Assembly: GCF_000196015.1 (NCBI RefSeq)
Contig: NC_007973.1
Location: 2,170,001 to 2,234,000, forward strand
DNA from: Cupriavidus metallidurans CH34
GTDB taxonomy: Bacteria; Pseudomonadota; Gammaproteobacteria; Burkholderiales; Burkholderiaceae
Reading direction: 5' to 3'
Length of the DNA stretch: 64,000 nt
The number at the start of each line of letters is the position of its first letter. Position 1 is the first letter of the stretch. Positions 1 through 14,987 of this stretch are shown piece by piece. The translations under genes were made by a program, and so were the position numbers. Below the pieces are notes generated by a model. It worked only from the letters and a program-made list of their open reading frames with translations. It had not been told where the DNA came from and made no database searches.

Positions 1-1062
1 CAAGGCCAGCGCCTCGGGACTGGGGCGCGAGACGTCGGCACAGGACAGGTAGCGCTGCAGAGGCGTCGCCTCGAGTTCGGCGTGTTCCTTGTGGTGGTAT
101 TCCTGCTCGACCCAGGCCTGCGTGGCGAGGTTCAATTGCTCCAGGGTGAGGTGCGACTCACCTTCGAGCATGGCCATCAGCCGGGACTCGAGCTGTCCCC
201 AGAAGCGTTCCTGCTTGGCATTCTGGTATGGGCTGTAGGGCAAGGTAGTCTGGTGCAGGATGCCCAGACTGGCCAGCCCCTCGACGAACTCGTCGGCCAT
301 CATGGCTGCGCCGTTATCGGTCATGATGGCCCGCGGCAGCCCTCGCTTCATGATCGCCTGCGAGACGCCGTGCACCAGCGAGGCAGTGGTCTCGTCGAGG
401 AACCACTGCAGGTGGCAGACCAGCCGCGAATGGTCGTCCATAATGCAGAGCAGCAGCGGCTTGTGCCACTGCCCATCGGGGGTGAGCACCTTGCGCGAAC
501 CATGGTGGAAGTCCAGGTGCCAGAGCGCGGCCACGTGGTCGACCTCGTAGCTACGCACCTCGCGTGCCTCGCGGCGAGCCGCAGCAGCGATGGCCCCATC
601 CGTGCTCGAGCGCGGGGTTGGCTTGCGCACCAGACCCTGCGCCTTCAGATACCGGCACACCGTGGTGTAGGACGGCAGCGTGTCCGGGCCATCCTTGGTC
701 GCGACGCGCAGGTTGTCGTAATGCAACTGCATGGTCCAGCCGGGGTGCTGACGGTACTGCTCGACCAGCGCTTCGATGATGGCTGGGCTCAGACTGACGA
801 AGTGGCCGCAATCGTCGCGCAGTCGGTTCTTGAGTTGATCGACCGGATCCTGGACGTGACGGGCCCGGTAATACCAGCGTTCGATGGAAGACGCGCCGAA
901 CTGAACGTCGGCGCCGGTGATGGGGTGCCGCCAGACCTTGGCGGCCAGTGCCTGGAACGCTTGCTGCAATTCTCCTTTGGCAGGCGGCGAAGCCAGCAAA
1001 GGGCCAATGACCGAGAAGCGCAAGCGCGCCCATCGGTTGCGATGATCAATCGATAGTGACAT
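1..1062 (-). CDS. DDE transposase, copy 1, partial at window edge
   Basis: N-terminal 354 codons of the same 479-residue transposase found complete at 5388-6827. The part present includes all three acidic catalytic positions (D184, D249 and E285 in the complete protein). The C-terminus runs off the left edge. The start ATG at 1062 lies downstream of the Cys-rich gene, as in copy 2. Nothing in the visible part suggests inactivation. Confidence 0.85.
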   Translation of the reverse strand, partial: MSLSIDHRNRWARLRFSVIGPLLASPPAKGELQQAFQALAAKVWRHPITGADVQFGASSIERWYYRARHVQDPVDQLKNRLRDDCGHFVSLSPAIIEALVEQYRQHPGWTMQLHYDNLRVATKDGPDTLPSYTTVCRYLKAQGLVRKPTPRSSTDGAIAAAARREAREVRSYEVDHVAALWHLDFHHGSRKVLTPDGQWHKPLLLCIMDDHSRLVCHLQWFLDETTASLVHGVSQAIMKRGLPRAIMTDNGAAMMADEFVEGLASLGILHQTTLPYSPYQNAKQERFWGQLESRLMAMLEGESHLTLEQLNLATQAWVEQEYHHKEHAELEATPLQRYLSCADVSRPSPEALAL

Positions 1063-1173
1063 GACTCTCCGTTGGGGGGATAACGGGAGCAGGCTACGGG
1101 CAGTGCGGGTGACCCGCCATCGACATGTTCTGCGGGAGATTCCCCTATCTGGCGCATCCCTCAGCCAGCGTGG

Positions 1174-1701
1174 TCAGGCCGGGCCCAGCAGCAGAAGCAA
1201 CACCGCGGCCAGACGCTCGTCTTCGCTGTCGTGCTCGACCGATTGCAGCAGGCAGTCGGGATAGATGAACGGCTCGGGCGTTGGCGGGATGAGGCCACGC
1301 AGCCACCGACCGACGGGGGTCTTGGGGAAGGTCTCGGTCCACCACTGACGCCAGCGCTTGAGCGTGGCCCAACTGATCGCCGGCAGGCCGTCCAGGCAGG
1401 CGCCAGTGGCACGGCTCGATCGCAGTACCAGGACAATGGCCAGCCAGACACGCCGGCCGAGAAAGCGCACCGAATCGGGCGTCATGCGTTTGCGGCATCC
1501 GGCACAGCACAGGCTCAGGCGCGTATTGCAGTCCGGGTGTGCTGCCGGTGGGCATCCGCGCGGCTTACGCGGATAGTTGGCACTGTGCAGCACAGAGCCG
1601 CAATGGCAGCAGCCCCTGTCTCGCGCCACCTTCATCAAGTCTTCGTCGATCCGGCGCAACAGGGCAAAAAACGCTGGCGTTTGTAGCAAGGCATGGCACA
1701 C
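1174..1701 (-). CDS. Cys-rich element-encoded protein (DUF6431-like), copy 1
   Basis: Identical translation to the gene at 4749-5276. It is the first gene of the insertion element, about 175 residues from a GTG start preceded by AAGGAG. Paired cysteines (GCCHCGS near the N-terminus and CCAGCRKR further on) suggest a small zinc-binding fold. The DUF6431 label is from memory of proteins accompanying this kind of transposase and ATPase. Its job in transposition is not known to me. Confidence 0.7.
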   Translation of the reverse strand: MCHALLQTPAFFALLRRIDEDLMKVARDRGCCHCGSVLHSANYPRKPRGCPPAAHPDCNTRLSLCCAGCRKRMTPDSVRFLGRRVWLAIVLVLRSSRATGACLDGLPAISWATLKRWRQWWTETFPKTPVGRWLRGLIPPTPEPFIYPDCLLQSVEHDSEDERLAAVLLLLLGPA

Positions 1702-1853
1702 TGCTGAGGTCTCCTTCATTGCTCGACACAATAAAGGCGACATCTTCCCTCAGGCGCGTGCATGCACGCTCCCTGAGGGAACCCCTCCAGCGTCCATCAC
1801 CGTTCTTGCTCAAATCCCCACGCTTTCGGCATCACGAAAGCTGCTTATGCACA

Positions 1854-2324
1854 CTGAATACCGGCCTGCGCCGGGGCGAATTGCTGGCGCTGGAATGGAC
1901 GGACATTGATTTAGAGCACGCGGTGCTGACCGTGCGCCGCGCGACCGCGAAGGGCGACAGGACCCGCCGCGTGCCGCTGAACGCTGAAGCGCTCGATGCG
2001 CTTACGCGCTGGAAGCCGCTTGCGCACAAGGTCTATGTTTTTGCGGGCGAGGATGGGCAACCGCTGAGCGAAATCAAAACGGCATGGTTGCAAGTTTTAC
2101 GCGACGCAAAAATCAGCAATTACCGCTGGCATGACCACCGGCATGATTTTGCGAGCCAGCTAGTAATGCGCGGGGTGGACCTCAATACATTGCGGGAACT
2201 GTTGGGGCACGCGGACCTGAAAATGGTTCTGCGTTACGCGCACTTGTCGCCCGAGCATACCGCCGCTGCCGTGGCGCTGCTGGATGCGCCGAAAATAACG
2301 TTGCCCCGGGCGCAAACATCATGA
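1854..2324 (+). pseudogene. Tyrosine integrase, C-terminal catalytic part, truncated by insertion element
   Basis: The frame entering at 1854 directly after the element end encodes about 156 residues with the tyrosine-recombinase catalytic signature: the box I arginine in NTGLRRGELLAL, WHDHRHDFAS carrying the H-x-x-R motif, and GHADLKMVLRYAHLS containing the catalytic tyrosine. The N-terminal core-binding domain is missing and should lie beyond the other end of element copy 1, outside the window. It would have excised and integrated the island. An apparent start upstream lies inside the inserted element and is not the native start. The gene overlaps the next one by ATGA. Confidence 0.88.
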
Positions 2325-3033: not shown

Positions 3034-3426
3034 GTGCACCCCTCAAATATCGTCCCCGCCGCTGACCCTGACAGCATCCGCGCAGCCGCCTATGAGCCGG
3101 GCGCGATGACCTTGGCGCAATTCTGCCGCCGCTATAATCTCGACCGCTCCACCGTATTCAAGCTGCGCCGCGATGGGCTGGGGCCGGACGAAATCCAGAT
3201 TGGCCGGAAGATTCTCATTACCCACCGGGCCGCCGTGGAATGGGAACTGCAAATGACCCTCCGCAGTAATGAACTGCGGGGAGTGCAGCGCACCCATACC
3301 CCGGCCCCGCCGGCAGTCCACCGACCGCGCGAAGCCGCCGGCCTCCCGAAGAAAGCCGCCGAGCCAGCGAAACGCCCGGGCCGTCCGCCCAAGGTCAAGC
3401 CCGAAGCTGCCCTAGCCGCCGAGTGA
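3034..3426 (+). CDS. AlpA/excisionase-like HTH regulator, 130 aa
   Basis: GTG start with GGAGG six bases upstream. Residues about 22-75 form a MerR/AlpA-type helix-turn-helix: MTLAQFCRRYNLDRSTVFKLRRDG followed by a wing region ending in the hydrophobic IGRKILITHRAAVEWE. The C-terminal third is Pro/Ala/Lys-rich (PAKRPGRPPKVKP), an AT-hook-like tail. Proteins of this kind sit next to integrases and either assist excision or activate satellite genes. It begins a new transcription unit behind a palindrome, followed by the zinc-finger and winged-helix genes. Function is inferred from fold and context. Confidence 0.75.
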   Translation: MHPSNIVPAADPDSIRAAAYEPGAMTLAQFCRRYNLDRSTVFKLRRDGLGPDEIQIGRKILITHRAAVEWELQMTLRSNELRGVQRTHTPAPPAVHRPREAAGLPKKAAEPAKRPGRPPKVKPEAALAAE

Positions 3427-3433
3427 GGCCGCC

Positions 3434-3736
3434 ATGGTTGATGACCTGCTGGCCCGGCTCTACCGCGTGCGGGAGGCTGGCTACAGCCAATGGCTGGCCT
3501 GCTGTCCCGCCTGTCAGGAACCCGGCCGCACGCTGTTGATTCGCAGCAATAGCGACGGCTTCACCCTTATCCATTGCCGCAACGGCTGCCCGCCCGGCTT
3601 CGTGCTGCACGCCGCCGGAGTGCCATGGAGCGTGTTGTTTTCGGATGGGGCGCAGCGCCGCCACGCCTGGCCGCCCGAATGGTGGCGCGAGCCGCCACGC
3701 TACGAGCGCGAGCCGCGCCCGATGGTGGAGCAATGA
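3434..3736 (+). CDS. Primase-type zinc-finger protein without catalytic domain, 100 aa
   Basis: Contains the zinc-ribbon spacing seen at the N-terminus of phage and P4-type primases: CCPACQ near residue 17, a beta stretch (RTLLIRSNSDGFTLIHC), then CRNGCPP. Full primases continue with TOPRIM or archaeal-type primase domains, but this protein stops at residue 100 after a Trp/Arg-rich tail, so it is a stand-alone DNA-binding finger or a remnant. It overlaps the next gene by ATGA, which suggests they work together in replication. Confidence 0.7.
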   Translation: MVDDLLARLYRVREAGYSQWLACCPACQEPGRTLLIRSNSDGFTLIHCRNGCPPGFVLHAAGVPWSVLFSDGAQRRHAWPPEWWREPPRYEREPRPMVEQ

Positions 3737-4196
3737 CCATGAGCAAGAGCAAGCCCACCGAAAAGAGAGAGGTCTACCCCGGAAAATTTGCCGCCGTGCC
3801 GGAGGCCATCCTCTATTCGTCTGCCGTGGTGTCGCTGTCGGACGGCGCCTTTCGTCTTTTGGTGTGTCTGCTGTCCCGGCACAACGGCGCGAACAACGGC
3901 CATTTGAGCGCCACGCAATCCGCCCTCCGGCCCCATGGCTGGGCCTCCAAGTCCAAGCTGGAAAGGGCACTGACCGAGCTAGTGGAGCACCGCCTTCTCG
4001 TACGCGCGCGCGAGGGCGGCCCGCACTGCGCGGCACTGTATGCGCTGTCATGGCTGCCCATCCTCAACTACAACGGCCTGCACCTTACCCCCGACACGTA
4101 CCCGCGCGGAGCGTGGGCAGACTACCGCGCCACGGACAACGGCAAGGCAAGGCGGCGTGTCTCGCGCGCGAATGGGAAGCCACGCGACAGCGGAGG

Positions 4197-4416
4197 AATC
4201 GCCCCTGCTTACGGGGCAATGCGGGCGACTGACGGAACGCTACACGGCCAGCCAATCGCCCCAAAATCGGAAAAAATCGCCCCGTATCAAGGGGCACATT
4301 GCCCCGTATCGTGGGGCGAAATTGCCCCTCCGTACGGGGAGCAGGAAACAGAATCGCCCCTTGATACGGGGCAGTCAGAGGCAAATTCGCGTTTTAATCG
4401 CCCCTCCGTACGGGGA
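4197..4416. repeat. Palindromic iteron cluster, candidate replication origin
   Basis: Six copies of GCCCC-N7-GGGGM (M = C or A), each preceded by AATC or ATT, plus one half-site. GCCCC boxes begin at 4201, 4258 (half-site), 4279, 4301, 4324, 4356 and 4400; the spacer is always 7 nt. Four consecutive boxes are 21, 22 and 23 nt apart, about two helical turns. Because the spacing breaks the reading frame, the repeat is conserved as DNA, not as a protein motif. An AT-rich patch (4382-4399) lies before the last unit. Confidence 0.75.
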
Positions 4417-4591
4417 CAGTTGCATAGTTGCCAGTGTCAGGTGGGATATGACGGGGAGGTTTTAGACCTGCTGCCGTGTCCGCGCTGTGGTGGTGCCCCG
4501 ACCGTGCTGGAACTGGCAAGGGGCGACCTGCCCCCCCTCTGGCTGGTGTCCTGTCGTAATGCCCGCTGCGGCGTGCGCCCCGGCGACACTG

Positions 4592-4596
4592 CCGGC
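4592..4596. repeat. Target-site duplication, left copy (CCGGC)
   Basis: CCGGC immediately before the element end TGTGC at 4597 is repeated as CCGGC at 8114-8118 immediately after the other end. Removing the element with one copy restores an open frame. Confidence 0.92.
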
Positions 4597-4668
4597 TGTG
4601 CATAAGCAGCTTTCGTGATGCCGAAAGCGTGGGGATTTGAGCAAGAACGGTGATGGACGCTGGAGGGG

Positions 4669-4705
4669 TTCCCTCAGGGAGCGTGCATGCACGCGCCTGA
4701 GGGAA
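4669..4705. promoter_or_regulatory. Large nested palindrome in element leader
   Basis: TTCCCTCAGG (4669-4678) and CCTGAGGGAA (4696-4705) are perfect arms surrounding the 14-bp palindrome GCGTGCATGCACGC (4681-4694). It sits between the terminal repeat and the first gene. As RNA it would fold only when transcription enters from outside, which could shield the element genes from read-through expression. Confidence 0.6.
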
Positions 4706-4748
4706 GATGTCGCCTTTATTGTGTCGAGCAATGAAGGAGACCTCAGCA

Positions 4749-5276
4749 GTGTGCCATGCCTTGCTACAAACGCCAGCGTTTTTTGCCCTGTTGCGCCGGA
4801 TCGACGAAGACTTGATGAAGGTGGCGCGAGACAGGGGCTGCTGCCATTGCGGCTCTGTGCTGCACAGTGCCAACTATCCGCGTAAGCCGCGCGGATGCCC
4901 ACCGGCAGCACACCCGGACTGCAATACGCGCCTGAGCCTGTGCTGTGCCGGATGCCGCAAACGCATGACGCCCGATTCGGTGCGCTTTCTCGGCCGGCGT
5001 GTCTGGCTGGCCATTGTCCTGGTACTGCGATCGAGCCGTGCCACTGGCGCCTGCCTGGACGGCCTGCCGGCGATCAGTTGGGCCACGCTCAAGCGCTGGC
5101 GTCAGTGGTGGACCGAGACCTTCCCCAAGACCCCCGTCGGTCGGTGGCTGCGTGGCCTCATCCCGCCAACGCCCGAGCCGTTCATCTATCCCGACTGCCT
5201 GCTGCAATCGGTCGAGCACGACAGCGAAGACGAGCGTCTGGCCGCGGTGTTGCTTCTGCTGCTGGGCCCGGCCTGA
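4749..5276 (+). CDS. Cys-rich element-encoded protein (DUF6431-like)
   Basis: First gene of the insertion element. GTG at 4749 has AAGGAG (4734-4739) nine bases upstream; an in-frame ATG at 4731 is the alternative. The 175 residues carry CCHCGS and CCAGCRKR cysteine pairs, a predicted zinc-binding region, then a Trp-rich segment (TLKRWRQWWTETFP) typical of DNA-binding helices. I recall such proteins as DUF6431 partners of rve-type transposases. A role in end recognition or regulation is a guess. It is followed after about 110 nt by the transposase gene. Confidence 0.75.
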   Translation: MCHALLQTPAFFALLRRIDEDLMKVARDRGCCHCGSVLHSANYPRKPRGCPPAAHPDCNTRLSLCCAGCRKRMTPDSVRFLGRRVWLAIVLVLRSSRATGACLDGLPAISWATLKRWRQWWTETFPKTPVGRWLRGLIPPTPEPFIYPDCLLQSVEHDSEDERLAAVLLLLLGPA

Positions 5277-5387
5277 CCACGCTGGCTGAGGGATGCGCCA
5301 GATAGGGGAATCTCCCGCAGAACATGTCGATGGCGGGTCACCCGCACTGCCCGTAGCCTGCTCCCGTTATCCCCCCAACGGAGAGTC

Positions 5388-6827
5388 ATGTCACTATCGA
5401 TTGATCATCGCAACCGATGGGCGCGCTTGCGCTTCTCGGTCATTGGCCCTTTGCTGGCTTCGCCGCCTGCCAAAGGAGAATTGCAGCAAGCGTTCCAGGC
5501 ACTGGCCGCCAAGGTCTGGCGGCACCCCATCACCGGCGCCGACGTTCAGTTCGGCGCGTCTTCCATCGAACGCTGGTATTACCGGGCCCGTCACGTCCAG
5601 GATCCGGTCGATCAACTCAAGAACCGACTGCGCGACGATTGCGGCCACTTCGTCAGTCTGAGCCCAGCCATCATCGAAGCGCTGGTCGAGCAGTACCGTC
5701 AGCACCCCGGCTGGACCATGCAGTTGCATTACGACAACCTGCGCGTCGCGACCAAGGATGGCCCGGACACGCTGCCGTCCTACACCACGGTGTGCCGGTA
5801 TCTGAAGGCGCAGGGTCTGGTGCGCAAGCCAACCCCGCGCTCGAGCACGGATGGGGCCATCGCTGCTGCGGCTCGCCGCGAGGCACGCGAGGTGCGTAGC
5901 TACGAGGTCGACCACGTGGCCGCGCTCTGGCACCTGGACTTCCACCATGGTTCGCGCAAGGTGCTCACCCCCGATGGGCAGTGGCACAAGCCGCTGCTGC
6001 TCTGCATTATGGACGACCATTCGCGGCTGGTCTGCCACCTGCAGTGGTTCCTCGACGAGACCACTGCCTCGCTGGTGCACGGCGTCTCGCAGGCGATCAT
6101 GAAGCGAGGGCTGCCGCGGGCCATCATGACCGATAACGGCGCAGCCATGATGGCCGACGAGTTCGTCGAGGGGCTGGCCAGTCTGGGCATCCTGCACCAG
6201 ACTACCTTGCCCTACAGCCCATACCAGAATGCCAAGCAGGAACGCTTCTGGGGACAGCTCGAGTCCCGGCTGATGGCCATGCTCGAAGGTGAGTCGCACC
6301 TCACCCTGGAGCAATTGAACCTCGCCACGCAGGCCTGGGTCGAGCAGGAATACCACCACAAGGAACACGCCGAACTCGAGGCGACGCCTCTGCAGCGCTA
6401 CCTGTCCTGTGCCGACGTCTCGCGCCCCAGTCCCGAGGCGCTGGCCTTGCGCCGGGCCTTCCGTATCCGCCAGCATCGCCGCCAGCGCAGAACCGACGGC
6501 ACCTTCACGTTGGACGGCGTGCGCTTCGAGATCCCCGGCGCTTACCGCCACCTCGAGCAAGTCTGCCTGAGCTACGCGCGCTGGGATCTCTCCCAAGTCG
6601 ACCTGATCGATGCGCGCATCGGCGCGATCCTGGCCGCCGTGTTCCCGCTGGACAAGTCTGCCAATGCCGACGCACGGCGCGCGCATCTCACGGCCAAGGG
6701 TGCCTCGCCTGCTAACGAGGAACCCGCGCAGGCTGGCACTGCGCCGCTGCTGCGTCAGTTGCTCGCCGAACACGCCGCCACCGGCCTGCCGCCGGCCTAT
6801 CTCCCACCCGCACCCACCAAGCTATGA
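5388..6827 (+). CDS. DDE (rve-type) transposase, 479 aa
   Basis: Integrase-core transposase. The RNase-H-fold triad is visible: D184 in WHLDFHHG, D249 in IMTDNGAAM and E285 in KQERFWGQ, giving the D-x(35)-E spacing of rve transposases. The N-terminal part is basic and helical, likely for end binding; the C-terminal part (about residues 350-420) contains a basic region and a beta-rich segment resembling the Mu-type C-terminal barrel. It overlaps the ATPase gene by ATGA, so the two are made together. The family's ATPase normally chooses target DNA and activates the transposase. Confidence 0.92.
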   Translation: MSLSIDHRNRWARLRFSVIGPLLASPPAKGELQQAFQALAAKVWRHPITGADVQFGASSIERWYYRARHVQDPVDQLKNRLRDDCGHFVSLSPAIIEALVEQYRQHPGWTMQLHYDNLRVATKDGPDTLPSYTTVCRYLKAQGLVRKPTPRSSTDGAIAAAARREAREVRSYEVDHVAALWHLDFHHGSRKVLTPDGQWHKPLLLCIMDDHSRLVCHLQWFLDETTASLVHGVSQAIMKRGLPRAIMTDNGAAMMADEFVEGLASLGILHQTTLPYSPYQNAKQERFWGQLESRLMAMLEGESHLTLEQLNLATQAWVEQEYHHKEHAELEATPLQRYLSCADVSRPSPEALALRRAFRIRQHRRQRRTDGTFTLDGVRFEIPGAYRHLEQVCLSYARWDLSQVDLIDARIGAILAAVFPLDKSANADARRAHLTAKGASPANEEPAQAGTAPLLRQLLAEHAATGLPPAYLPPAPTKL

Positions 6828-7657
6828 ATCAACCCAACCTGCTGGCCTTGTACGGTCTGAAGTTCAACCCCTTCGCCCAGGACATCCCCGTCGAGGCCGT
6901 GTTCGTGCCACCCAAGCTCGATCACTTCTGCTGGCGCATTGAGAACGGTATGGCCCGCGAAGGCGGCTTCGCCATGGTGCATGGCGACCCCGGTTGCGGC
7001 AAGAGCGTCACGCTGCGCCTGCTCCATCAGCGCCTCATGCGCGTCCCCGATCTGATGGTCGGCTCGATCGCTCACCCACAGAGCAATCTGGCGGACTTCT
7101 ATCGCGAGCTCAGCGACATCTTTACCGTACCGCTCAAGCCCCACAATCGCTGGGGCGGCTTCAAGGCGCTGCGCGAGCGCTGGCTCACCCACATGGAGGC
7201 CAGCCGCCGCCGCTGCGTGCTGCTCATCGATGAAGCCCAGGAGATGGCGGTGCCAGCCCTCTCGGAACTGCGCCTGCTCGCACAGGCACGCTTCGACTCG
7301 CAATTGCTGCTGTGCGTGGTGCTTGCCGGCGACGCTCGCCTGCCGGAGAAGTTCAGCCGCGAGGACCTGATCCCGCTGGGCAGCCGCATCCGCTGCCGTC
7401 TGGCGCTGGAGAGTGCGAGCATCGACGAGCTGCAGGCCTGCCTGGACCACTTGCTGGCCGCCGCCGGCAACGCCACCCTGATGACCATGCCATTGCGCCA
7501 GACCCTGTGTGAGCACGCCGCCGGCAATTACCGCATCCTGATGAACCTGGCGGGCGAGCTTCTGGCCCAGGCCGCGCAGCGGGAGCTACCGCAGATCGAC
7601 GAGAAGCTCTATCTGGAAACCTACAGCGCAACCCTGAACCGCCGCGCCAGGCGGTGA
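6824..7657 (+). CDS. AAA ATPase transposition helper (TniB/ExeA-like), 277 aa
   Basis: Walker A GDPGCGKS at residues 54-61, Walker B VLLIDEAQE around residue 130, and a sensor region LLCVVLAGD. The N-terminus (YGLKFNPFAQD) matches the ExeA/TniB-type start. Such ATPases bind target DNA and recruit the transposase in Mu, Tn7 and Tn5053 systems, some giving target immunity. Translationally coupled to the transposase (ATGA at 6824). Two copies of this element lie only 2.7 kb apart, so strong local immunity is unlikely. Confidence 0.88.
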   Translation: MNQPNLLALYGLKFNPFAQDIPVEAVFVPPKLDHFCWRIENGMAREGGFAMVHGDPGCGKSVTLRLLHQRLMRVPDLMVGSIAHPQSNLADFYRELSDIFTVPLKPHNRWGGFKALRERWLTHMEASRRRCVLLIDEAQEMAVPALSELRLLAQARFDSQLLLCVVLAGDARLPEKFSREDLIPLGSRIRCRLALESASIDELQACLDHLLAAAGNATLMTMPLRQTLCEHAAGNYRILMNLAGELLAQAAQRELPQIDEKLYLETYSATLNRRARR

Positions 7658-7710
7658 GTGGCGCCGTTGGCCATCGCCGCCACGTCCATCAACACAACGA
7701 CGACATCACC

Positions 7711-7926
7711 ATGACCTTCCACCAGCCATCCGGCATCGCCCAGGGGCTGCCCCTGCTCATTGATGCCAACTGGACGCCCGCGCAGGCCTGGGCTGTGATC
7801 GAATTGCTCGACGATCTGCGCGACCGTCTGCATGCTCACTATCAATTGGCCTTGGCCCAGTGGCTGGCCGAAGATCGGCAGGAGCATCCTGATGGCCTTG
7901 GCGATCTCGCAGATAACGACTTCTGA
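7711..7926 (+). CDS. Small element-encoded protein, 71 aa
   Basis: Fourth frame of the element. ATG at 7711 opens MTFHQPSGIAQGLPLL; a GTG at 7654 overlapping the ATPase stop is an alternative longer start but would include a His-rich stretch that looks untranslated. The protein is mostly helical and acidic (TPAQAWAVIELLDDLRDRL). A perfect terminator hairpin follows five bases after the stop. Function unknown; position suggests a regulator or accessory factor of the element. Confidence 0.6.
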   Translation: MTFHQPSGIAQGLPLLIDANWTPAQAWAVIELLDDLRDRLHAHYQLALAQWLAEDRQEHPDGLGDLADNDF

Positions 7927-7930
7927 TCCA

Positions 7931-7961
7931 GTAACAAGGGGCCCGCCGGGCCCCTTGTTAC
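7931..7961 (+). terminator. Element terminator, 14-bp perfect stem
   Basis: GTAACAAGGGGCCC (7931-7944), loop GCC, GGGCCCCTTGTTAC (7948-7961). A perfect 14-bp stem with a 3-nt loop directly after the last element gene; no long U-tract, so it may also act as a protein site. Confidence 0.7.
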
Positions 7962-8113
7962 ATCAGTGCCGCTGCTCCGCATCCGGTCCACCGCGATAGA
8001 TCGCCACGTCCATCAGCGTTGCCCGACGGCACGCAACATTGGTGATGGACGGTGCCGCAGCCGACCATCAATTACCGTGCTCGCGCATCCATCGAATCTC
8101 GTGCTCACGCACA

Positions 8114-8202
8114 CCGGCTCGCCCTACCTTGCAAGCCGCCCTGAAGCCGTAGAGCGCTGGAACCGCTTTGCGGCTCGTCCGGCTGGCGGGAGCCTGCAAT
8201 GA
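8114..8202 (+). pseudogene. Displaced 3' end of the winged-helix/Lar-like gene
   Basis: 8114-8118 is the second CCGGC duplication. Reading on from 8119 in the frame of the gene cut at 4596 gives SPYLASRPEAVERWNRFAAR and a stop at 8202. The pattern -x-A-x-x-WNR after two CxxC knuckles (on the other side of the insertion) is the end of Lar-like restriction-alleviation zinc ribbons. The stop overlaps the next gene start (ATGA at 8199), showing the operon was continuous before the insertion. Confidence 0.82.
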
Positions 8203-8678
8203 CCGCGCGCCTGCCTCACGTCTTCCCCGGCACCCCCGCTATCACAACGCTGCTGCGGCAGGGTCATGCATGGATGGACCGCCTTGCCGCGCTTGAAGGC
8301 TGGTCCGCCGTCCTGCTGGCCGATTTGCATGACCGCCTGCGCCGGCAGCCCGCCGCGACCGTGGCCGACACCGTAGAGCATTTCCGCCATCGCCTGAACG
8401 ACGCGGAGGAACGCGAGCGGGAGCGCTTGCGCGCCGTGCGTCCGTCCGTGGGCTGGTGTCCTGGCTGCCACGGTGAATGCGTGGGCACGCACAGAAGCTG
8501 TATGCCGGGCTATGGCGTTGCGCCACCCAGTCCCATCCCGGAAGTGCCGCAGCGCGTGGAGCCCCAGCCCATTGCAAGCCCGACTCGCCCTCGCTATCAG
8601 CGCAAGCCGCGCGGACTGGCGCGGCACCTCGGCCATGTCACCGCACCGGGGTGCAAGGAAAACATAGAGGAGCCATGA
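8199..8678 (+). CDS. Unknown island protein with Cys cluster, 159 aa
   Basis: ATG overlaps the stop of the split upstream gene and has GGGAG upstream. The first half is helical (LADLHDRLRRQP, EHFRHRLNDAEERERERLR, likely a short coiled coil). Around residues 87-102 lies WCPGCHGECVGTHRSC, a possible zinc knuckle. The tail is basic and Pro-rich. It belongs to a tightly packed run of small genes between the initiator and capsid genes. No family recognised. Confidence 0.6.
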   Translation: MTARLPHVFPGTPAITTLLRQGHAWMDRLAALEGWSAVLLADLHDRLRRQPAATVADTVEHFRHRLNDAEERERERLRAVRPSVGWCPGCHGECVGTHRSCMPGYGVAPPSPIPEVPQRVEPQPIASPTRPRYQRKPRGLARHLGHVTAPGCKENIEEP

Positions 8679-8803
8679 CCATGAAAGTGCAAAACGCGGG
8701 AGGGCCACGACGCATGGCCGGGCTATCCCGCCTGAAGCCAAAACGCAGCGGCACGGCGCCGCGCAACACAACGGAGGTGCGGATATGGACGACGACACGT
8801 TAG
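8675..8803 (+). CDS. Very small basic protein, 42 aa, doubtful
   Basis: ATG at 8675 overlaps the previous stop (ATGA) and the frame runs 42 codons, overlapping the start of the next gene by 19 nt. The product is strongly basic (RRMAGLSRLKPKRSGTAPR). The overlap pattern matches its neighbours, but the short length means it could be a chance frame. Confidence 0.35.
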   Translation: MTMKVQNAGGPRRMAGLSRLKPKRSGTAPRNTTEVRIWTTTR

Positions 8804-9141
8804 GGGCGGGCCTGCATCTCGCGTGGCCCACAGCGGAGGGCTACCGGCATTTCATGGTGGCGGTGTTGGGCGCGGATGGAAAGGCCGCCGATTACGTGAT
8901 GGTGGGCGCGTCACGCCCGGACCTGCCGGCGCTAGCGCAACGGTATCTATCGGGTGCGCGGGAATTTGACGATGCGACGCGCCGGGATATGGAGCGCTGG
9001 CTAGGACAGTCCATTGAATCGGCCATTGCGGCGGCGCTCGAAACCTGCATTCGCAATCTGTCCACGCTGACCGTGGGTGACATTAGCGCCAAGGCCAGTC
9101 GGCCCCGGGGCGACTCAAAGGGAGGTATGGGAAATGTTTGA
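8785..9141 (+). CDS. Unknown island protein, 118 aa
   Basis: ATG at 8785 preceded by GGAGGTGCGGAT, a strong ribosome site. A compact alpha/beta N-terminus (GLHLAWPTAEGYRHFMVAVL) is followed by helices (DATRRDMERWLGQSIESAIAAALE). No cysteines of note, no membrane segment. It overlaps the following coiled-coil gene by 8 nt, so co-translation is likely. No family recognised. Confidence 0.6.
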   Translation: MDDDTLGAGLHLAWPTAEGYRHFMVAVLGADGKAADYVMVGASRPDLPALAQRYLSGAREFDDATRRDMERWLGQSIESAIAAALETCIRNLSTLTVGDISAKASRPRGDSKGGMGNV

Positions 9142-9424
9142 ACACATGAGCGCGGAGCAAACGGCGGAAGTAATTCACCAGTGCATTGACATGCGACTGA
9201 AGGGGCCATTTCAACAAGTGGCCGAGGCATTCAAGGCCCGGGACGCCAAGCGCACCGAGGATATGGCCGCGCTACGGCAGGAGCTAGCCGCACTGCGTGG
9301 CGAGGTGCGCGCACTGAAAGCCGAGCGGCGCCGGGCCGATGCGTTGGGCGCCGAGGCCGAGCGCTGCGAACTGGTCCGCCGCGAGGCGCAGGCCGCCGAG
9401 TCCCGGCTATCGCGCCGGCAATGA
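9134..9424 (+). CDS. Small coiled-coil protein, 96 aa
   Basis: ATG at 9134 lies eight bases after GGGAGG, so I prefer it over upstream in-frame starts. Residues about 30-95 are a continuous charged heptad-like helix (RTEDMAALRQELAALRGEVRAL), predicted to form a coiled coil. Overlaps the end of the previous gene. Scaffold-like or accessory roles are possible because the capsid gene is nearby, but that is speculation. Confidence 0.6.
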   Translation: MFEHMSAEQTAEVIHQCIDMRLKGPFQQVAEAFKARDAKRTEDMAALRQELAALRGEVRALKAERRRADALGAEAERCELVRREAQAAESRLSRRQ

Positions 9425-9440
9425 CGAGGGAGGGCACACC

Positions 9441-9737
9441 ATGGACATCAAATCCGACAGCGTAGCCCGCCGCATCGAGGCCGCCCGCGCGGCCCGGCTT
9501 GCGCAAACCGAAGTCAGTAGCCGTGCCCTGCTGGTGCGGTGCTGGGCCGGCGAGGCCTCGCCCCGGCAGGCCATCAAGGCATTCTGCGTCGCCTGTGTCG
9601 GCGGCACCCGCGCCGAGGTGACGCGCTGCACCTGCTATGCCTGCCCCCTCTACGAGTTCCGACCGTTCAAAACCGCGCGAGAGGACGGGATTTTGGAGCT
9701 AAAAGCGCCGGAAGCGGACCCGGGCATGGCTGAGTAG
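9441..9737 (+). CDS. Phage-type Cys-rich small protein, 98 aa
   Basis: ATG at 9441 after GAGGGAGGGC. Residues about 41-80 carry a cysteine arrangement common in small phage and mobile-element proteins: IKAFCVACVGG, then VTRCTCYACPLYEFRPF (C-x2-C ... C-x-C-x2-CPL-x2-FR). A zinc-binding role is likely; the exact function of this family is unknown to me. It is the last gene of the small-gene run before the non-coding stretch in front of the capsid gene. Confidence 0.65.
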   Translation: MDIKSDSVARRIEAARAARLAQTEVSSRALLVRCWAGEASPRQAIKAFCVACVGGTRAEVTRCTCYACPLYEFRPFKTAREDGILELKAPEADPGMAE

Positions 9738-10114
9738 CCCCGAGCCGTGGAAACGCAATCCAGCGCCGCCCCTCGGCGCCTCAAGCCAAGGGGCGATAGC
9801 TTCACAAGTGGGGGGGCGGGTCGAGAAATCGACACCTGTCGCCCACCGCGTACGCGATATCCGCGCGTGGGTAAATCACAAAAATTGGCCCGGGTAAATT
9901 TTGGGCCACAAAAAATCCGGCGGAGGGCGGGATAGCCGGGTTGAGGGTGGGTCAGGCGGGGATGCCGGCGGGATGGGCCGCCGGTTCGCCCGCCGATGCT
10001 GGGAGTGTCACCGGTATTGCTGCGGCATTCCTTATATATGGAATCGGCATCGGATAGAACTAGAAAAATGACTTGGTAAATGCCGATTTATTTCTAAATG
10101 AATTGGAGAAAATC
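9738..10114. other. Palindrome-rich non-coding stretch before capsid gene
   Basis: 377 nt without a convincing gene. It holds a hairpin GTCGA-GAAA-TCGAC (9820-9833) nested between GTGGG (9808-9812) and CCCAC (9842-9846), and two direct repeats GGGTAAAT (9869-9876 and 9892-9899) each followed by a CAAAAA-rich patch. A packaging site (cos or pac), a capsid promoter, or both would fit this position. Confidence 0.45.
10027..10044. promoter_or_regulatory. AT-centred palindrome upstream of capsid gene
   Basis: ATTCC-TTATATAT-GGAAT, 70 nt before the capsid start. The TATATA core could serve as a -10 element flanked by an operator. Style resembles the palindrome before the AlpA-like gene, though the sequences differ. 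Confidence 0.35.
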
Positions 10115-11455
10115 ATGTCTGCATCTACGGAAATTTCCGCCTTGGAAGCCCAGCGGGGCGCGAAACTGGAAATCATGGAAGGCTTGCACCAGCGCGCCGC
10201 CGACGAGGGCCGGCCCTTTACTGCCGAAGAGGACGCCCGCTTTGAGTCCGGTGCGCGCGAGGTGGAGAGCATCGACCTGAGGCTGGCCCCGCTGCGCCGG
10301 AGCCAGGAATTGGCGGCGTATCATGCGGTGCCGGTGGTTCCGGGCTTTTCGCAGCCGCACGCCCGCGAGCCGGTGGGCCTCGCCCAGCCCGAGCGGGAGG
10401 ACAAGCGCGGCTTGTCTTTTGCGCGCTATGCGATGGCGCTTGCCGCCGGCAAGGGCAATCTGTCCCAATCGTTGGAATTTGCCCGCCACGCCTACGGGCG
10501 AAGCAACCCGGAGCTAGTCTCCATCATCAAGGCGGCAGTCAGTGCCGGCACTACCACGGACCCGCAGTGGGCCGGCTCTTTGGTCTACTACCAGAACATG
10601 GCCGACGAATTTATCGACCTGCTACGGCCTGCCACCATCATTGGCAGGATGACCGGATTCCGCCGGGTGCCCTTTGCCGTCAGGATTCCGCGCCAAACGG
10701 CGGGGGCCTCTGTTGGGTGGGTGGGTGAAGGGGCGGCCAAGCCGGTTAGCAAACTGGCCTTTGACGCCATCAGCATACCGTTTAGCAAAATCGCGGGCAT
10801 CGTCGCAATCACCGAAGAGCTAGCAAGGTATTCCGCCCCGAGCGCCGAGGCCTTGGTGCGCGATGACCTCGTGGCGACCATTAGCCAGTTTATGGACGTG
10901 CAGTTTATCGACCCGTCCATCGCGGCAAATCCGGCGGCCGATAGCCCGGCCTCCATTACCCACGGCGCGCAAACCATCCCGAGTAGCGGCGCGACCGTTG
11001 ACAATGTGGCGGACGATTTGAGCACGATGCTGTCCGCCGTGGTCGTCAATGGGTTCCCGCTGCGCGGCCTCGCCTGGGTGATGAACAGCCGCACGAAAAT
11101 CAGCCTGTCAAATTTGCGCAATGCCATGGGCGTATATGCCTATCCCACGCTGGCGGCAAACGGGACATTGCTGGGCTATCCGGTGATTGACTCCGCCTCG
11201 GTGCCCATCACCGCCGGCACCCCGCCCACCACGTTTATTGCGCTGGTGGTGCCCGGGGAAATCCTGCTAGCCGACGATGGGGGCGTGACGCTGGATAGCT
11301 CGCGCGAGGCCGCGCTCGCCATGAGTGACGATGGCACCGGCGCCCTCGTCAGCCTGTGGCAAAACAACCTCGTTGGCATCCGGGCGGAGCGCTTCTGCCA
11401 TTGGCTGCGCCGCCGCGAAGGCTGCGTGGTGGTGCTGACAGGCGTGGAATATTAA
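10115..11455 (+). CDS. HK97-type phage major capsid protein, 446 aa
   Basis: ATG at 10115 with GGAGAA upstream. Residues about 1-65 are a helical delta-type region (ISALEAQRGAKLEIMEG, EVESIDLRLAPLRRSQEL), which in HK97-fold capsids acts as internal scaffold. The body has the family pattern: an N-arm/E-loop region (FRRVPFAVRIPRQTAG, VGWVGEGAAKPVS), a spine helix and a P-domain segment (LRGLAWVMNSRTKISL, LLGYPVIDSASVP), and the C-terminal VSLWQNNLVGIRAERF stretch. No protease, portal or terminase gene is adjacent. In a satellite it would make or resize capsids using helper-phage parts. Confidence 0.9.
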   Translation: MSASTEISALEAQRGAKLEIMEGLHQRAADEGRPFTAEEDARFESGAREVESIDLRLAPLRRSQELAAYHAVPVVPGFSQPHAREPVGLAQPEREDKRGLSFARYAMALAAGKGNLSQSLEFARHAYGRSNPELVSIIKAAVSAGTTTDPQWAGSLVYYQNMADEFIDLLRPATIIGRMTGFRRVPFAVRIPRQTAGASVGWVGEGAAKPVSKLAFDAISIPFSKIAGIVAITEELARYSAPSAEALVRDDLVATISQFMDVQFIDPSIAANPAADSPASITHGAQTIPSSGATVDNVADDLSTMLSAVVVNGFPLRGLAWVMNSRTKISLSNLRNAMGVYAYPTLAANGTLLGYPVIDSASVPITAGTPPTTFIALVVPGEILLADDGGVTLDSSREAALAMSDDGTGALVSLWQNNLVGIRAERFCHWLRRREGCVVVLTGVEY

Positions 11456-11574
11456 GGGGTGTACGGGTGCGCGGCCCTATCCGCGCGGCGGGCTAGCCGG
11501 TGACTCCCGCTCTCTTGAATAAGGCCGGCAGCCGTGGCCCCGTTCTCCGCTATCTCTTGCGGGGTGACACGGTA

Positions 11575-11603
11575 GCCCGGCCTCTCGCAATGAGGGGCTG
11601 GGC
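11575..11603 (+). terminator. Hairpin after capsid gene, first of a duplicated pair
   Basis: GCCCGGCCTC-TCGCAAT-GAGGGGCTGGGC. The same hairpin (core CCTCTCGCAATGAGGGG) recurs at 12326-12355. It is the only clear structure in the 256-nt gap between the capsid gene and the exported-protein gene. Confidence 0.6.
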
Positions 11604-11711
11604 GCCTGGCCCATTTTGCGCAAGCTGGCGGCGGCTAGGTCGTCTGTCTATGGTCACTTGCAAGTGCTACGATACGTCCCATCAGACGCGGTGTCGAACT
11701 CTTGCCCGGCC

Positions 11712-12293
11712 ATGACCAAGCTCCGATATTTTGCATGTGCAATCACTGTCCTACTTGCCGCTACTTCGTCCAATGCTCAACAAGCAAAGCCCCGAAGCGG
11801 TCAAGGTGCTGCACGATGGGCACAAGAGCCTTCGTCGTTCCTTGGAATCAAACTGGGCGAGCCAATGGCAATTAAGAGTTGCCGAGAGACCACGGACCTA
11901 TGTTTAGACGACGGGAGCACAAATCGGTATGCGGTATTCAGTAATCTGCCCGACTTGGGTTTTCGCTATACGCTAACTTCTTTGATTGAGGAAGGCAAGC
12001 CCATTAGCATTGAACTCAAGACCGACCACGCTAATTATTCTGCGCTGCTCAGTATGCTAAAACAGCGCTTCGGCTTGCCACAGAAGGCTAAAACTGAGGC
12101 AATTCAAACGCGAATGGGTATGAAGACGTCGTCAACGGATTCTATTTGGCACGGCCAGAAAGTATCCATGCTCTTAAACGAGCGGCATGAGACAATTGAC
12201 AACACTAGGGTTGTTGTAATGGACCGAAAGCTGGCAGATGAGCTTTCTTCTCGTCAAGAAACTGAAATGAAGTCCAAGGCCAATGCGTTTTGA
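11712..12293 (+). CDS. Exported cargo protein of unknown function, 193 aa
   Basis: The ATG at 11712 gives a clean Sec signal peptide (MTKLRYFACAITVLLAATSS, cleavage after SNAQ-A region). The mature part contains a paired cysteine segment (SCRETTDLCLDD) and a beta-rich body (YAVFSNLPDLGFRYTLTSLIEEGK, NTRVVVMDRKLADEL), compatible with a small periplasmic domain. Base composition is clearly more AT-rich than the capsid gene, a mark of acquired cargo. Matched hairpins lie on both sides. No family recognised. Confidence 0.65.
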   Translation: MTKLRYFACAITVLLAATSSNAQQAKPRSGQGAARWAQEPSSFLGIKLGEPMAIKSCRETTDLCLDDGSTNRYAVFSNLPDLGFRYTLTSLIEEGKPISIELKTDHANYSALLSMLKQRFGLPQKAKTEAIQTRMGMKTSSTDSIWHGQKVSMLLNERHETIDNTRVVVMDRKLADELSSRQETEMKSKANAF

Positions 12294-12325
12294 TGCCATT
12301 TTGACTGGGTCAAGTAACAGGCAAC

Positions 12326-12355
12326 GCCCCGACCTCTCGCAATGAGGGGGCGGGC
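12326..12355 (+). terminator. Hairpin terminator, second of the duplicated pair
   Basis: GCCCCGACCTC-TCGCAAT-GAGGGGGCGGGC followed by GTTTTA: a rho-independent terminator for the exported-protein gene. Shares loop and inner stem exactly with the hairpin at 11575-11603. Confidence 0.75.
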
Positions 12356-12358
12356 GTT

Positions 12359-13243
12359 TTACTGTCTGCGTCGGTTACGCACTCGCCCTTGCTCTATGTG
12401 GAAAGGTCGGATGGACAACGCGAACTTATGCTCATCGAGCACGGCCTCAAAAAAATCGACGTTCAACCCTTGCGCCCTGACAAAATCGACAATCCTTGTT
12501 CTCTCGTTCGGTGGCATGTTGCAGCCAAACGTTATAGAGGCTATGACAGATGGACTTAAAGTTGCCGGCCCATGTCCTGCCGGCCTTCCAATGAACCGCA
12601 TCAGGTCAGCATCATCCTCAATCCCGCGCATTAAAGACTTCGGGTCAATTCCGGTGTTAAGACTTAAAATCCGATACTCGTCCTCGTATTCCCAGAATTT
12701 AGCCTTCTTGTGATAAACATCGTAAAATTCTTTTGAATTCGTTGAGAGATGATTGTAGTGCGGTCTGATATCGGAATATTCTATTTTGTGCGCAATTCTA
12801 AATATACCGACACCTGTTTTAAAGCCAATTGATAATCCTGTATGTTTTTCCGCGTAGTGTGACCACATCAACGGGTGACTGTTGTTGGCGGAGACGCAAT
12901 AAACGCCGACTTCTCGAATTCTGCGGTGGGCGGAATTTTGATAATTTTCCCGCCATACGGAACTAGATTGACTTCTAACAATTCCAACCTGTTCCCGTCG
13001 CACCTTCCGGCTATGGCCTTGCCTCGCGCCGGCTCGAAACAATCTCTTATTTACCCTCTTATCCTGATTGCTTGGAATATCCAAGCGTGGCAAACAATCA
13101 AAAGGGTCATTGAAATCGAGTGGCGACGATAGATAGATTTGACCGAGTCGGATGAGGTTCTGAAACCAAGTCCAACGCTCACCATTGATGGACATGAACT
13201 TGTAAAGCACTGGCGGTGGCGTCGTGTCTTCGATATCGGGCAT
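12359..13243 (-). CDS. DUF2971 family protein, 294 aa
   Basis: Shows the DUF2971 hallmarks: LYKFMS near the start, LGQIYLSSPLDFNDPFDCLP about residue 35, YCVSANNSHPLMWSHYAEKHTGLSIGF in the middle and KFWEYEDEYRIL after it. Biochemical function is not established to my knowledge; the family is frequent on islands and near defence genes. AT-rich relative to the host. ATG at 13243 is my choice because upstream sequence overlaps a gene remnant; an in-frame ATG at 13306 would add 21 residues. It faces the exported-protein gene tail to tail. Confidence 0.7.
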   Translation of the reverse strand: MPDIEDTTPPPVLYKFMSINGERWTWFQNLIRLGQIYLSSPLDFNDPFDCLPRLDIPSNQDKRVNKRLFRAGARQGHSRKVRREQVGIVRSQSSSVWRENYQNSAHRRIREVGVYCVSANNSHPLMWSHYAEKHTGLSIGFKTGVGIFRIAHKIEYSDIRPHYNHLSTNSKEFYDVYHKKAKFWEYEDEYRILSLNTGIDPKSLMRGIEDDADLMRFIGRPAGHGPATLSPSVIASITFGCNMPPNERTRIVDFVRAQGLNVDFFEAVLDEHKFALSIRPFHIEQGRVRNRRRQ

Positions 13244-13298
13244 GTCGAATTGGCTAGGGGCGGGCGAGCAATTCTGCCACACGGCGCTTGCCATGTCC

Positions 13299-13502
13299 TG
13301 CGGCACCTACCGCCGCCACATGGCCACGGCGCAGAAGCGCGAGCACATCGCGGCCCAATTAAAAGAAATCCCGGAGAAATCGGACCGGCAAGTAGCCAAG
13401 GCGCTAGGGGTGTCGCATCACACGGTTTCCGAAGAGCGGGCGGCCTTGGGGGCTGGTGGGCAAATTGCCCACCAGCCCACGCGCACGGGCACCAAATCCC
13501 GG
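13299..13502 (+). pseudogene. Remnant of a ParB-like HTH protein gene
   Basis: About 68 codons resemble the middle of phage and plasmid ParB-type proteins: RRHMATAQKREHIAAQLKEI, EKSDRQVAKALGVSHHTVSEERAAL, GQIAHQPTRTG. Start and end of such a protein are absent; the frame runs into unrelated sequence that is antisense to the next gene. Read as debris of an earlier replication or partition gene, evidence of layered insertions in the cargo zone. Confidence 0.55.
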
Positions 13503-13811
13503 TTAGTAGGCGATATCGTCCGGGTCCTTGAATTGGTGCAAGTAATAAGTATGGGTTTTGGTCTTGCCGTCAGCTTGCGGCCAATTAATTTGTACAGTCT
13601 GGCCGATGATGCTGTAACAGCCCTCACGGGGAGGGGTGGAACCACCCCATTGCTTGGCTATCTTGTCACCCAAGCCGGATTTGCAGGGCAGCTTGTAAAG
13701 GTCGATGTGGCTACCACCCCATGTGGGTGCGGAGGCAAAATAATCGCCATCGGAGGCGTAGGCAGTCGCTACAGCCGTTGCCAACAACAAGGCGAGAAAG
13801 GAGTGTGTCAT
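13503..13811 (-). CDS. Small exported protein of unknown function, 102 aa
   Basis: Signal peptide MTHSFLALLLATAVATAYAS with a probable cleavage site after residue 19. The mature part of about 80 residues is Gly/Trp/Tyr-rich, with two cysteines (LPCKSGL, REGCYSI) that could form one disulfide, and a beta-like C-terminus (KTKTHTYYLHQFKDPDDIAY). A second secreted product in the cargo zone. No family recognised. Confidence 0.65.
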   Translation of the reverse strand: MTHSFLALLLATAVATAYASDGDYFASAPTWGGSHIDLYKLPCKSGLGDKIAKQWGGSTPPREGCYSIIGQTVQINWPQADGKTKTHTYYLHQFKDPDDIAY

Positions 13812-13866
13812 TCAAGCATTCTCCGCTAGGAATGTCGCCAATTTGTGCCCTGATACCACAGATAAA

Positions 13867-14887: not shown

Positions 14888-14911
14888 TTGGCTGCAAAGC
14901 CTTGCTGGTAT

Positions 14912-14987
14912 TGGTTGCGGGGGCAGGACTTGAACCTGCGACCTTCGGGTTATGAGCCCGACGAGCTGCCAACTGCTCCACCCCGCG
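14912..14987 (-). tRNA. Initiator tRNA-fMet (CAT)
   Basis: 76 nt on the minus strand, CCA encoded. Anticodon stem-loop CGGGCTCATAACCCG carries three G-C pairs and CAT, and the first base C opposite A in the acceptor stem (CGCGGGG...CCCCGCAACCA) is the initiator hallmark, so this is formyl-Met tRNA and not elongator Met. T-arm GCAGGTTCAAGTCCTGC is intact. The island abuts its 3' end, leaving the gene whole on this side. Confidence 0.95.

What the first reader, a model, noticed from the sequence alone, without database searches (positions are those of the whole stretch)
4197..4416. Lambda-O-style origin: palindromic iterons inside a winged-helix initiator gene
Six GCCCC-N7-GGGG units and a half-site, four of them in 21-23-bp phasing, lie in the linker-coding part of a gene whose N-terminus is a winged helix. 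The repeats fall in all three reading frames (box starts 4201, 4258, 4279, 4324 share one frame; 4301 and 4400 another; 4356 the third), so selection acts on DNA. Lambda keeps its iterons inside gene O in the same manner. This would be the replication origin of the island, and the sequence of the iteron is not one I know.
Basis: partly seen in the sequence, partly recalled or inferred. Interest (0 to 1): 0.78.

Follow-up and report, generated by a model that had tools for sequence, protein, structure and literature searches.

The report
Replication-origin repeat array in mobile island
A chromosomal mobile island carries, inside the gene for a DNA-binding replication starter, a row of mirror-image DNA boxes that this protein very probably reads as its replication start site; distant relatives carry the same layout written in different letters, and one amino acid of the protein predicts one letter of the box.

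Summary
In detail: six GCCCC-N7-GGGG boxes plus a half-site at 4201-4416, in all three frames, far above chance. No fetched relative carries a GCCCC array. Instead, homologous winged-helix genes carry arrays of other palindromic boxes at the same place: above all 20 shuffles in 46 of 49, 49 of 55 (held out) and 21 of 25 loci, against 1/49, 0/55 and 0/25 upstream. Gaps cluster at 22, 32-33 and 43-45 bp; the window has 22, 23, 32, 44. Recognition-helix residue 74 predicts a box base: acidic gives G in 48 of 49, otherwise 6 of 52; of 13 edge-disjoint pairs 9-12 support, none contradicts. So the protein very likely binds the boxes. Origin function is inferred. Lying wholly inside the gene is the minority layout (13 of 112). 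The island sits in a tRNA-Met gene; two identical insertion sequences interrupt its integrase and the initiator's 3' end, so this copy is probably inactive.

The parts
4201..4217 (+). box 1 (GCCCCTGCTTACGGGGC)
4258..4262 (+). half-site GCCCC, followed by an A-rich stretch (0.60 AT at 4261-4280)
4279..4295 (-). box 2, exact reverse complement of box 5
4301..4317 (-). box 3, inverted orientation, 22 bp after box 2
4324..4340 (+). box 4, 23 bp after box 3
4356..4372 (+). box 5, 32 bp after box 4
4400..4416 (+). box 6, 44 bp after box 5; between them an AT-rich stretch (0.60 AT at 4381-4400)
3733..4605 (+). initiator-type gene, 290 codons before the stop; its last codons and stop lie in the insertion sequence
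3739..4137 (+). winged-helix domain (profile match); presumed recognition-helix residues S72-K73-S74-K75, presumed wing near G95
4465..4575 (+). C-terminal Lar-like zinc-ribbon stretch (Pfam PF14354 E 7e-4, below its curated cut-off)
3434..3736 (+). small protein resembling the N-terminus of a phage DNA primase profile (phrog_6088 E 2e-6)
3034..3426 (+). AlpA/excisionase-type HTH regulator (weak: phrog_66 E 0.0024; 31% identity over 49 aa to the gene at the same place in a same-genus island)
1854..2324 (+). C-terminal part of the tyrosine integrase; an N-terminal part lies left of the window beyond the insertion sequence
1..1853 (-). insertion sequence copy 1 (continues left of the window to G000:C3:2168337, 3517 bp in all), interrupts the integrase; 6-bp flanking repeat
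4597..8113 (+). insertion sequence copy 2 (3517 bp, identical, inverted; rve transposase plus AAA ATPase), interrupts the 3' end of the initiator gene; 5-bp flanking repeat
10073..11455 (+). HK97-type major head protein (phrog_617 E 8e-77)
14911..14957 (.). right attachment site: 47 bp, all but the first base in the tRNA-Met gene, repeated exactly at G000:C3:2167319 (left end of the island)

Best explanation
The boxes are the binding sites of the winged-helix protein encoded just before and around them, and together they are the replication origin (iteron array) of an integrated, satellite-type mobile island. After excision, dimers of the protein bind the palindromic boxes, which sit at about 2, 3 and 4 helical turns so that they face one side of the DNA; the complex opens nearby AT-rich DNA and brings in a helicase from host or helper. 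Shown here by comparison: array, place, spacing, dyad geometry, and residue-base covariation. Inferred: binding itself, opening, helicase recruitment, induction by a helper. In this window the array lies wholly inside the reading frame, which goes on into a Lar-like zinc ribbon, as lambda keeps its iterons in gene O; in most relatives it straddles or follows the stop codon. This copy is interrupted by two insertion sequences and is probably inactive.
For: Array significance in the window; the same statistic finds lambda's known origin (z 7.5, gaps 20, 24, 23) and nothing in two other lambda stretches. Arrays directly after the domain beat all 20 shuffles in 46 of 49 discovery loci, 49 of 55 held-out loci and 21 of 25 family-level loci; upstream controls 1/49, 0/55, 0/25; far controls 6/48, 4/54, 1/24. 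In the held-out set, bands 20-24/31-34/41-46 (set by eye) hold 102 of 132 gaps up to 60 bp although they cover 15 of 45 possible values. Same-genus relative L136 has gaps 22, 24, 32, 44 with another box sequence and an ORF that also runs through the array. The dyad is odd-centred in 100 of 112 arrays; in the 101 used, position 4 is C in 95. A column scan that used no structure put residues 95, 74, 72 and 73 on top. Residue 74 acidic -> G at half-site position 3 in 48 of 49, else 6 of 52; in 23 later-fetched loci 6 of 6 against 2 of 17; 13 edge-disjoint pairs, 9-12 support, 0 contradict. AT excess +0.128 in the 20 bp that start 10 bp after the start of the last box, n=48. Integrase upstream on the same strand in 33 of 44 loci with at least 4.5 kb upstream; attachment repeats bound the window's island.
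Against: No direct test of binding or replication. In the window the DNA after the last box is only modestly AT-rich (0.50, 0.40, 0.45 in three 20-bp bins from 4421; local mean 0.343). DnaA boxes are rare near the arrays (5 of 111 loci; controls 3 of 110 and 1 of 110). Residue 74 of the window is Ser, and position 3 of its half-sites is mixed (counted as no call), so the window itself does not test the clearest rule. 3 of 49, 6 of 55 and 4 of 25 loci gave no significant array; 19 of 131 loci gave none by the rule. Three of the six later-fetched acidic loci (L210-L212) are 88-99% identical to L085, used before, so only three are truly new. An operator array for autoregulation, or a partition site, bound by the same protein would show the same covariation.
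Confidence: 0.82

Rival explanations
1. The boxes are operators: the winged-helix protein is a repressor or activator of its own operon or of the downstream genes, not a replication initiator.
For: Winged-helix proteins are often regulators; a few of 50 members hit regulator families weakly (one or two members each). The covariation shows recognition, not replication.
Against: The array lies 3' of the gene or in its 3' part, not at its promoter; several boxes at 22/33/44 bp followed by AT-rich DNA is an origin layout; PHROG matches of members are mostly to DnaD-like helicase-loader and replication-initiation families (17, 11 and 7 of 50 for the top three); PICI and SGI1 origins sit at just this place (PMC6092414, section 6 and passages read; PMC7433901, passages read).
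Confidence: 0.1
2. The boxes are partition or copy-control sites bound by the initiator or another protein (centromere-like iterons, incompatibility).
For: Iteron arrays in known replicons also control copy number (recalled general knowledge).
Against: The elements integrate, so partition is needed little (inference). No partition gene turned up in the 8 recurrent neighbour clusters that were scanned, but partition genes were not searched for as such.
Confidence: 0.04
3. The boxes work as RNA hairpins (attenuation, mRNA stability) or are a protein-level repeat.
For: The + strand of 4190-4430 folds better than 200 shuffles (z -3.95), as an array of palindromes would.
Against: Boxes fall in more than one frame relative to the gene in 100 of 112 arrays, coding or not, and in three frames in the window, so not a protein repeat; helical spacing and a residue-base rule have no obvious meaning for RNA hairpins; no Rfam match up to E 0.1.
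Confidence: 0.02

Closest known systems
Phage lambda gene O / ori-lambda
   Same: Initiator with iterons (inverted repeats) inside its gene, then an AT-rich tract (PMC7466680, passages read; record NC_001416 features).
   Different: No detectable sequence homology of the domain; box letters differ; lambda gaps are 20, 24, 23 against 22/32-33/43-45 here; arrays here mostly straddle or follow the gene end; the C-terminal part here is a Lar-like ribbon in the window and another stretch in L145.
Gram-negative PICI replicon (int, alpA, pri-rep, ori)
   Same: Integrase, AlpA-type regulator, initiator with iterons and an AT-rich region immediately 3' of the initiator gene (PMC6092414, section 6 and passages read).
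   Different: The initiator here is a small winged-helix protein with no primase domain found; PICI iterons are described there as two sets flanking an AT-rich region.
Capsid-forming PICI
   Same: A family member, L085 (Nitrosospira multiformis Nl7), has integrase, initiator, array, head protein, protease, portal and small terminase. What defines the class is partly recalled, partly from PMC10803314 passages.
   Different: In the window's island only the major head protein was found among the ORFs scanned.
SGI1 rep/oriV
   Same: Integrative island with its own initiator and four GC-rich 17-bp iterons just downstream of rep (PMC7433901, passages read).
   Different: RepA_C initiator, direct repeats, conjugative-plasmid helper.
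PLE RepA_N initiator of Vibrio cholerae satellites
   Same: Satellite-encoded initiator of DnaD-like fold binding semi-palindromic iterons (PMC7145576, passages read); RepA chains are among the best PDB sequence hits of our profile.
   Different: PLE iterons lie in a non-coding region; no clear sequence relation shown (best E 0.005).
Putative oriV of PFGI-1 / pKLC102-type islands of Pseudomonas
   Same: Four copies of a palindrome with a GTTCGGAATCCGAAC core (PMC2647930, passages read), of the same style as boxes of L077, L080 and L082 here.
   Different: Described as a putative plasmid-type origin upstream of another gene; whether its initiator belongs to this family was not tested.

Membership tests
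Lambda O / ori-lambda | Iterons inside the initiator gene | tested here: met
   All boxes lie in ORF 3733-4605
Lambda O / ori-lambda | N-terminal domain homologous to lambda O | tested here: not met
   hhalign probability 2.3%; TIGR01610 in 1 of 50 members at 0.0025; O-like PHROG matches in 11 and 7 of 50 members, none for the window (0.2 for the full window protein)
Lambda O / ori-lambda | AT-rich tract beside the last iteron | tested here: inconclusive
   Family-wide AT excess; modest in the window
Lambda O / ori-lambda | Protein binds iterons and starts replication | not testable with these tools
   Covariation supports binding
Gram-negative PICI | Integrase plus attachment repeats | tested here: met
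   Integrase parts and 47-bp tRNA-Met repeat
Gram-negative PICI | AlpA regulator | tested here: inconclusive
   Gene 3034 matches weakly; a relative's gene at this place is PF05930 AlpA, its cluster being in 13 loci
Gram-negative PICI | Primase-initiator (pri-rep) | tested here: not met
   Small separate primase-like protein at 3434 and an initiator with no primase match
Gram-negative PICI | Origin immediately 3' of the initiator gene | tested here: inconclusive
   Straddling or after the stop in 99 of 112 arrays; inside the gene in the window
Gram-negative PICI | Induction and packaging by a helper phage | not testable with these tools
   No induction or packaging data were available
Capsid-forming PICI | Own head, protease, portal and terminase genes | tested here: not met
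   Only the head protein among window ORFs scanned; head, protease, portal and small terminase in relative L085
RepA_N initiators | RepA_N N-terminal winged helix | tested here: inconclusive
   PDB profile search: 4pta E 0.005, RepA chains 0.033-0.035; no RepA_N match in Pfam among 50 members

The most novel reading that the evidence does not exclude
This is an unnamed, widespread family of island initiators whose origins keep one architecture (dyad boxes at about 2, 3 and 4 helical turns) while protein and boxes change specificity together under a simple code led by recognition-helix residue 74. Such re-coding would let several islands share a cell without cross-firing or titrating each other, and it would let the origin of any family member be read from its protein alone.
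Probability: 0.45. Interest if true: 0.78.

Novelty: new variant of a known kind. Interest (0 to 1): 0.63.

Why it matters
No Pfam or NCBIfam family covers it as tested on 50 members (a third match PHROG replication families). A profile finds 883 clustered proteins at E 1e-5 (best 120 listed) and matches in 26 of 398 sampled genomes of the phylum, the window's own included and 13 of them weak hits from other classes. It offers a way to find origins of integrated islands from sequence, and a natural set of initiator-origin pairs in which the evolution of DNA recognition can be tested directly: the prediction for each pair is one amino acid against one base.

Tried and rejected
Full-length and domain-only searches of the protein database with the window protein found only itself or nothing, and a viral-contig scan with it found nothing: the protein is divergent. 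The family link rests on single-sequence searches of genomes, phages and plasmids (best other genome hit E 7e-19), then on profiles that include the window.

Exact 8-mer counting was too blunt (19 of 49 arrays at 1 in 100 or better; controls 0 of 49 and 3 of 48). An 18-mer statistic with mismatches replaced it and was then applied to later-fetched loci (in one search the domain end was extrapolated to profile position 133). Far-downstream controls were not empty (6 of 48, 4 of 54, 1 of 24). Searching fetched loci for the window's own 17-bp box found four copies only in the window's own records and one or two scattered copies in 6 other loci. DnaA boxes: rare. RNA families: none. A first pairing of tree tips (49 pairs) was not path-independent and is not used; the edge-disjoint count replaces it. 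In both an uncalled base counts as not G (7 of 52 non-acidic loci, the window among them).

Dropped rows: L001, L034, L121 (the window itself), L025, L041 (duplicates), L021 (no winged-helix ORF), L059, L063, L079, L087, L116 (duplicates); L081 and L105 too short. The covariation used 78 of 112 arrays (odd dyad, symmetry at least 3.0) and 23 of 46 new arrays, from 57 new loci. The 17 IMG/VR loci L213-L229 (all Ala74; 16 even, one weak dyad) fell out by that rule. L083 and L119 are probably the same element and both counted; L036/L037, L085/L088, L100/L103, L106/L107, L133/L134 and L210-L212 are close pairs or groups; the edge-disjoint test is the guard.

Full report
OBSERVATION. Boxes are imperfect palindromes; box 2 is the exact reverse complement of box 5. 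Gaps of the last five boxes are 22, 23, 32 and 44.

THE ELEMENT. The window is G000:C3:2170001-2234000. A 47-bp piece of the tRNA-Met gene at window 14911-14957 is repeated exactly at G000:C3:2167319, so the island is about 17.6 kb (2167319-2184957). It holds, left to right, a tyrosine integrase, an AlpA/excisionase-type HTH gene (weak match), a small primase-like protein, the initiator-type gene with the boxes, small ORFs, an HK97-type head protein and a DUF2971 gene that matches candidate defence family PDC-S31. Two identical 3517-bp insertion sequences in inverted orientation, with 6- and 5-bp flanking repeats, interrupt the integrase and the 3' end of the initiator gene. This copy is therefore probably inactive.

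RELATIVES. A single-sequence search found relatives in 19 of 369 genomes of the class, in one phage-labelled record (16 kb, annotated 'replication protein O') and in one plasmid-borne island. Profiles found matches in 35 of 399 genomes (order), 23 of 299 (family) and 26 of 398 (phylum); each count includes the window's own genome, and 13 of the last 26 are weaker hits in other classes. 883 clustered proteins match at E 1e-5. The plasmid and phage collections gave one record each for the queries tried, while IMG/VR gave 29 contigs and genome contigs 58 loci, so this looks like a family of integrated, provirus-like islands rather than of free plasmids or ordinary phages. Members match replication PHROGs (17, 11 and 7 of 50 for the top three), no Pfam or NCBIfam family consistently. 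The best solved-structure hit by sequence is a replication initiator chain (4pta, E 0.005), then RepA chains (0.033-0.035).

ARRAYS. I scored the best family of 18-mers (up to 5 mismatches, either strand) in the 350 bp around and after the domain, and in two control stretches, against 20 dinucleotide shuffles each. Discovery loci: 46 of 49 beat all shuffles, upstream 1 of 49, far 6 of 48. Loci fetched afterwards from other collections: 49 of 55, 0 of 55, 4 of 54. Family-level loci: 21 of 25, 0 of 25, 1 of 24. The known lambda origin scores z 7.5 by the same measure. In the held-out set gaps pile up at 22, 32-33 and 43-45 bp; 102 of 132 gaps up to 60 bp fall in bands, set by eye, that cover a third of the possible values, and the resultant length is 0.65 near a 10.8-bp period, a broad maximum. 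The 20-bp bin that starts 10 bp after the start of the last box (so it takes in the end of that box) is 12.8 points richer in AT than its surroundings, n=48. Of 112 arrays (from 131 loci) 72 straddle the stop codon, 27 lie after it and 13 lie wholly inside the ORF, the window among them. A same-genus island with a 62%-identical integrase part (L145, array in L136) has gaps 22, 24, 32, 44, another box sequence, and an ORF that also runs on through the array into a different C-terminal stretch.

RECOGNITION CODE. Half-sites were extracted without any protein information; the dyad is odd-centred in 100 of 112 arrays. In the 101 arrays used, position 4 is C in 95. I then asked which protein columns predict box similarity beyond overall identity, in pairs below 50% identity of 78 loci: the top four columns are residues 95, 74, 72 and 73 in window numbering (partial r 0.296, 0.291, 0.172, 0.164); the largest value over all columns in 40 label permutations was 0.218, so only 95 and 74 pass on their own, and 95 and 72 are nearly invariant columns. 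Residues 72-75 begin the presumed recognition helix and 95 lies in the presumed wing (inference from the winged-helix pattern; no model could be made). Residue 74 acidic goes with G at half-site position 3 in 42 of 43, otherwise in 4 of 35. In 23 later-fetched loci: 6 of 6 and 2 of 17; three of those six (L210-L212) are 88-99% identical to L085, used before. All 101: 48 of 49 against 6 of 52. On a tree built without columns 71-77 the acidic state changes 13 times by parsimony; 13 edge-disjoint contrasting pairs give 9-12 supporting, none contradicting, the rest ties, median sign-test p 0.001. Residue 73 also sorts with the core (Glu with CTAC in 7 of 10, Lys with GTAC in 23 of 37 and CCCC in 4 of 37; descriptive only). 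The window has Lys73 and CCCC.

MECHANISM. Shown: a phased array of dyad boxes in a fixed place, and covariation of box with the DNA-reading part of the neighbouring protein. Inferred: dimers bind each box, the complex opens AT-rich DNA next to the array, and a helicase is loaded. Precedents for such an array 3' of an island's initiator are the Gram-negative PICI origin (PMC6092414, section 6 and passages read) and SGI1 oriV (PMC7433901, passages); for an array inside the gene, lambdoid O (PMC7466680, passages); for a satellite initiator of DnaD/RepA_N type, PLE (PMC7145576, passages). PICMI satellites replicate with a primase and their text has no 'iteron' (PMC10803314, passages); the jumbo-phage-transduced I55 islands have an integrase, AlpA and an HTH protein of unstated role (PMC12595487, passages), which was not compared with this family. 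The putative oriV of PFGI-1-type islands has palindromes of similar style (PMC2647930, passages).

AGAINST. No experiment; only modest AT-richness in the window itself; rare DnaA boxes; a minority of loci without arrays; far-downstream controls that are not empty; an operator reading that covariation alone cannot exclude; a window whose own residue 74 (Ser) does not test the clearest rule.

IN PRINT? Searches of the held library for satellite, PICI, origin and iteron terms, lambda O terms and recognition-helix/iteron covariation (no paper) showed no description of this family in the listings or the passages read; most subscription papers are not in that library.

Noticed in passing
window 1-1853 and 4597-8113 (copy 1 continues to G000:C3:2168337): Two identical inverted copies of a 3517-bp insertion sequence (TGTG...CACA ends; rve transposase and AAA ATPase) with 2.7 kb between them in one small island, each with its own short flanking repeat.
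   Followed up: partly
window 12362-13306, minus strand: DUF2971 protein matching PADLOC candidate defence family PDC-S31 (E 6e-44); possible defence cargo of the island.
   Followed up: no
window 4465-4575: Lar-like (restriction alleviation) zinc ribbon in frame behind the origin-coded linker of the initiator gene; same-genus relative L145 has a different C-terminal stretch there.
   Followed up: partly
L085 (Nitrosospira multiformis Nl7) 4613-14530: Same initiator and array followed by head protein, protease, portal, small terminase and a tail-fibre-like gene: a capsid-forming satellite-like element in a nitrifier.
   Followed up: partly
L213-L229 (IMG/VR contigs): A related group with Ala74 and arrays of a different layout (box starts near 0, 21, 50, 73) and an even or weak dyad; perhaps a distinct sub-architecture.
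   Followed up: no
L040, far-downstream control stretch: A strong repeat array (z 11.2) 700-1050 bp downstream of the domain instead of directly after it; the origin may be displaced there.
   Followed up: no
PFGI-1 oriV (PMC2647930, passage) and L077, L080, L082: The published putative oriV palindromes of a large Pseudomonas island share a CGGAATCCG centre with boxes of three loci here; the initiators were not compared.
   Followed up: no
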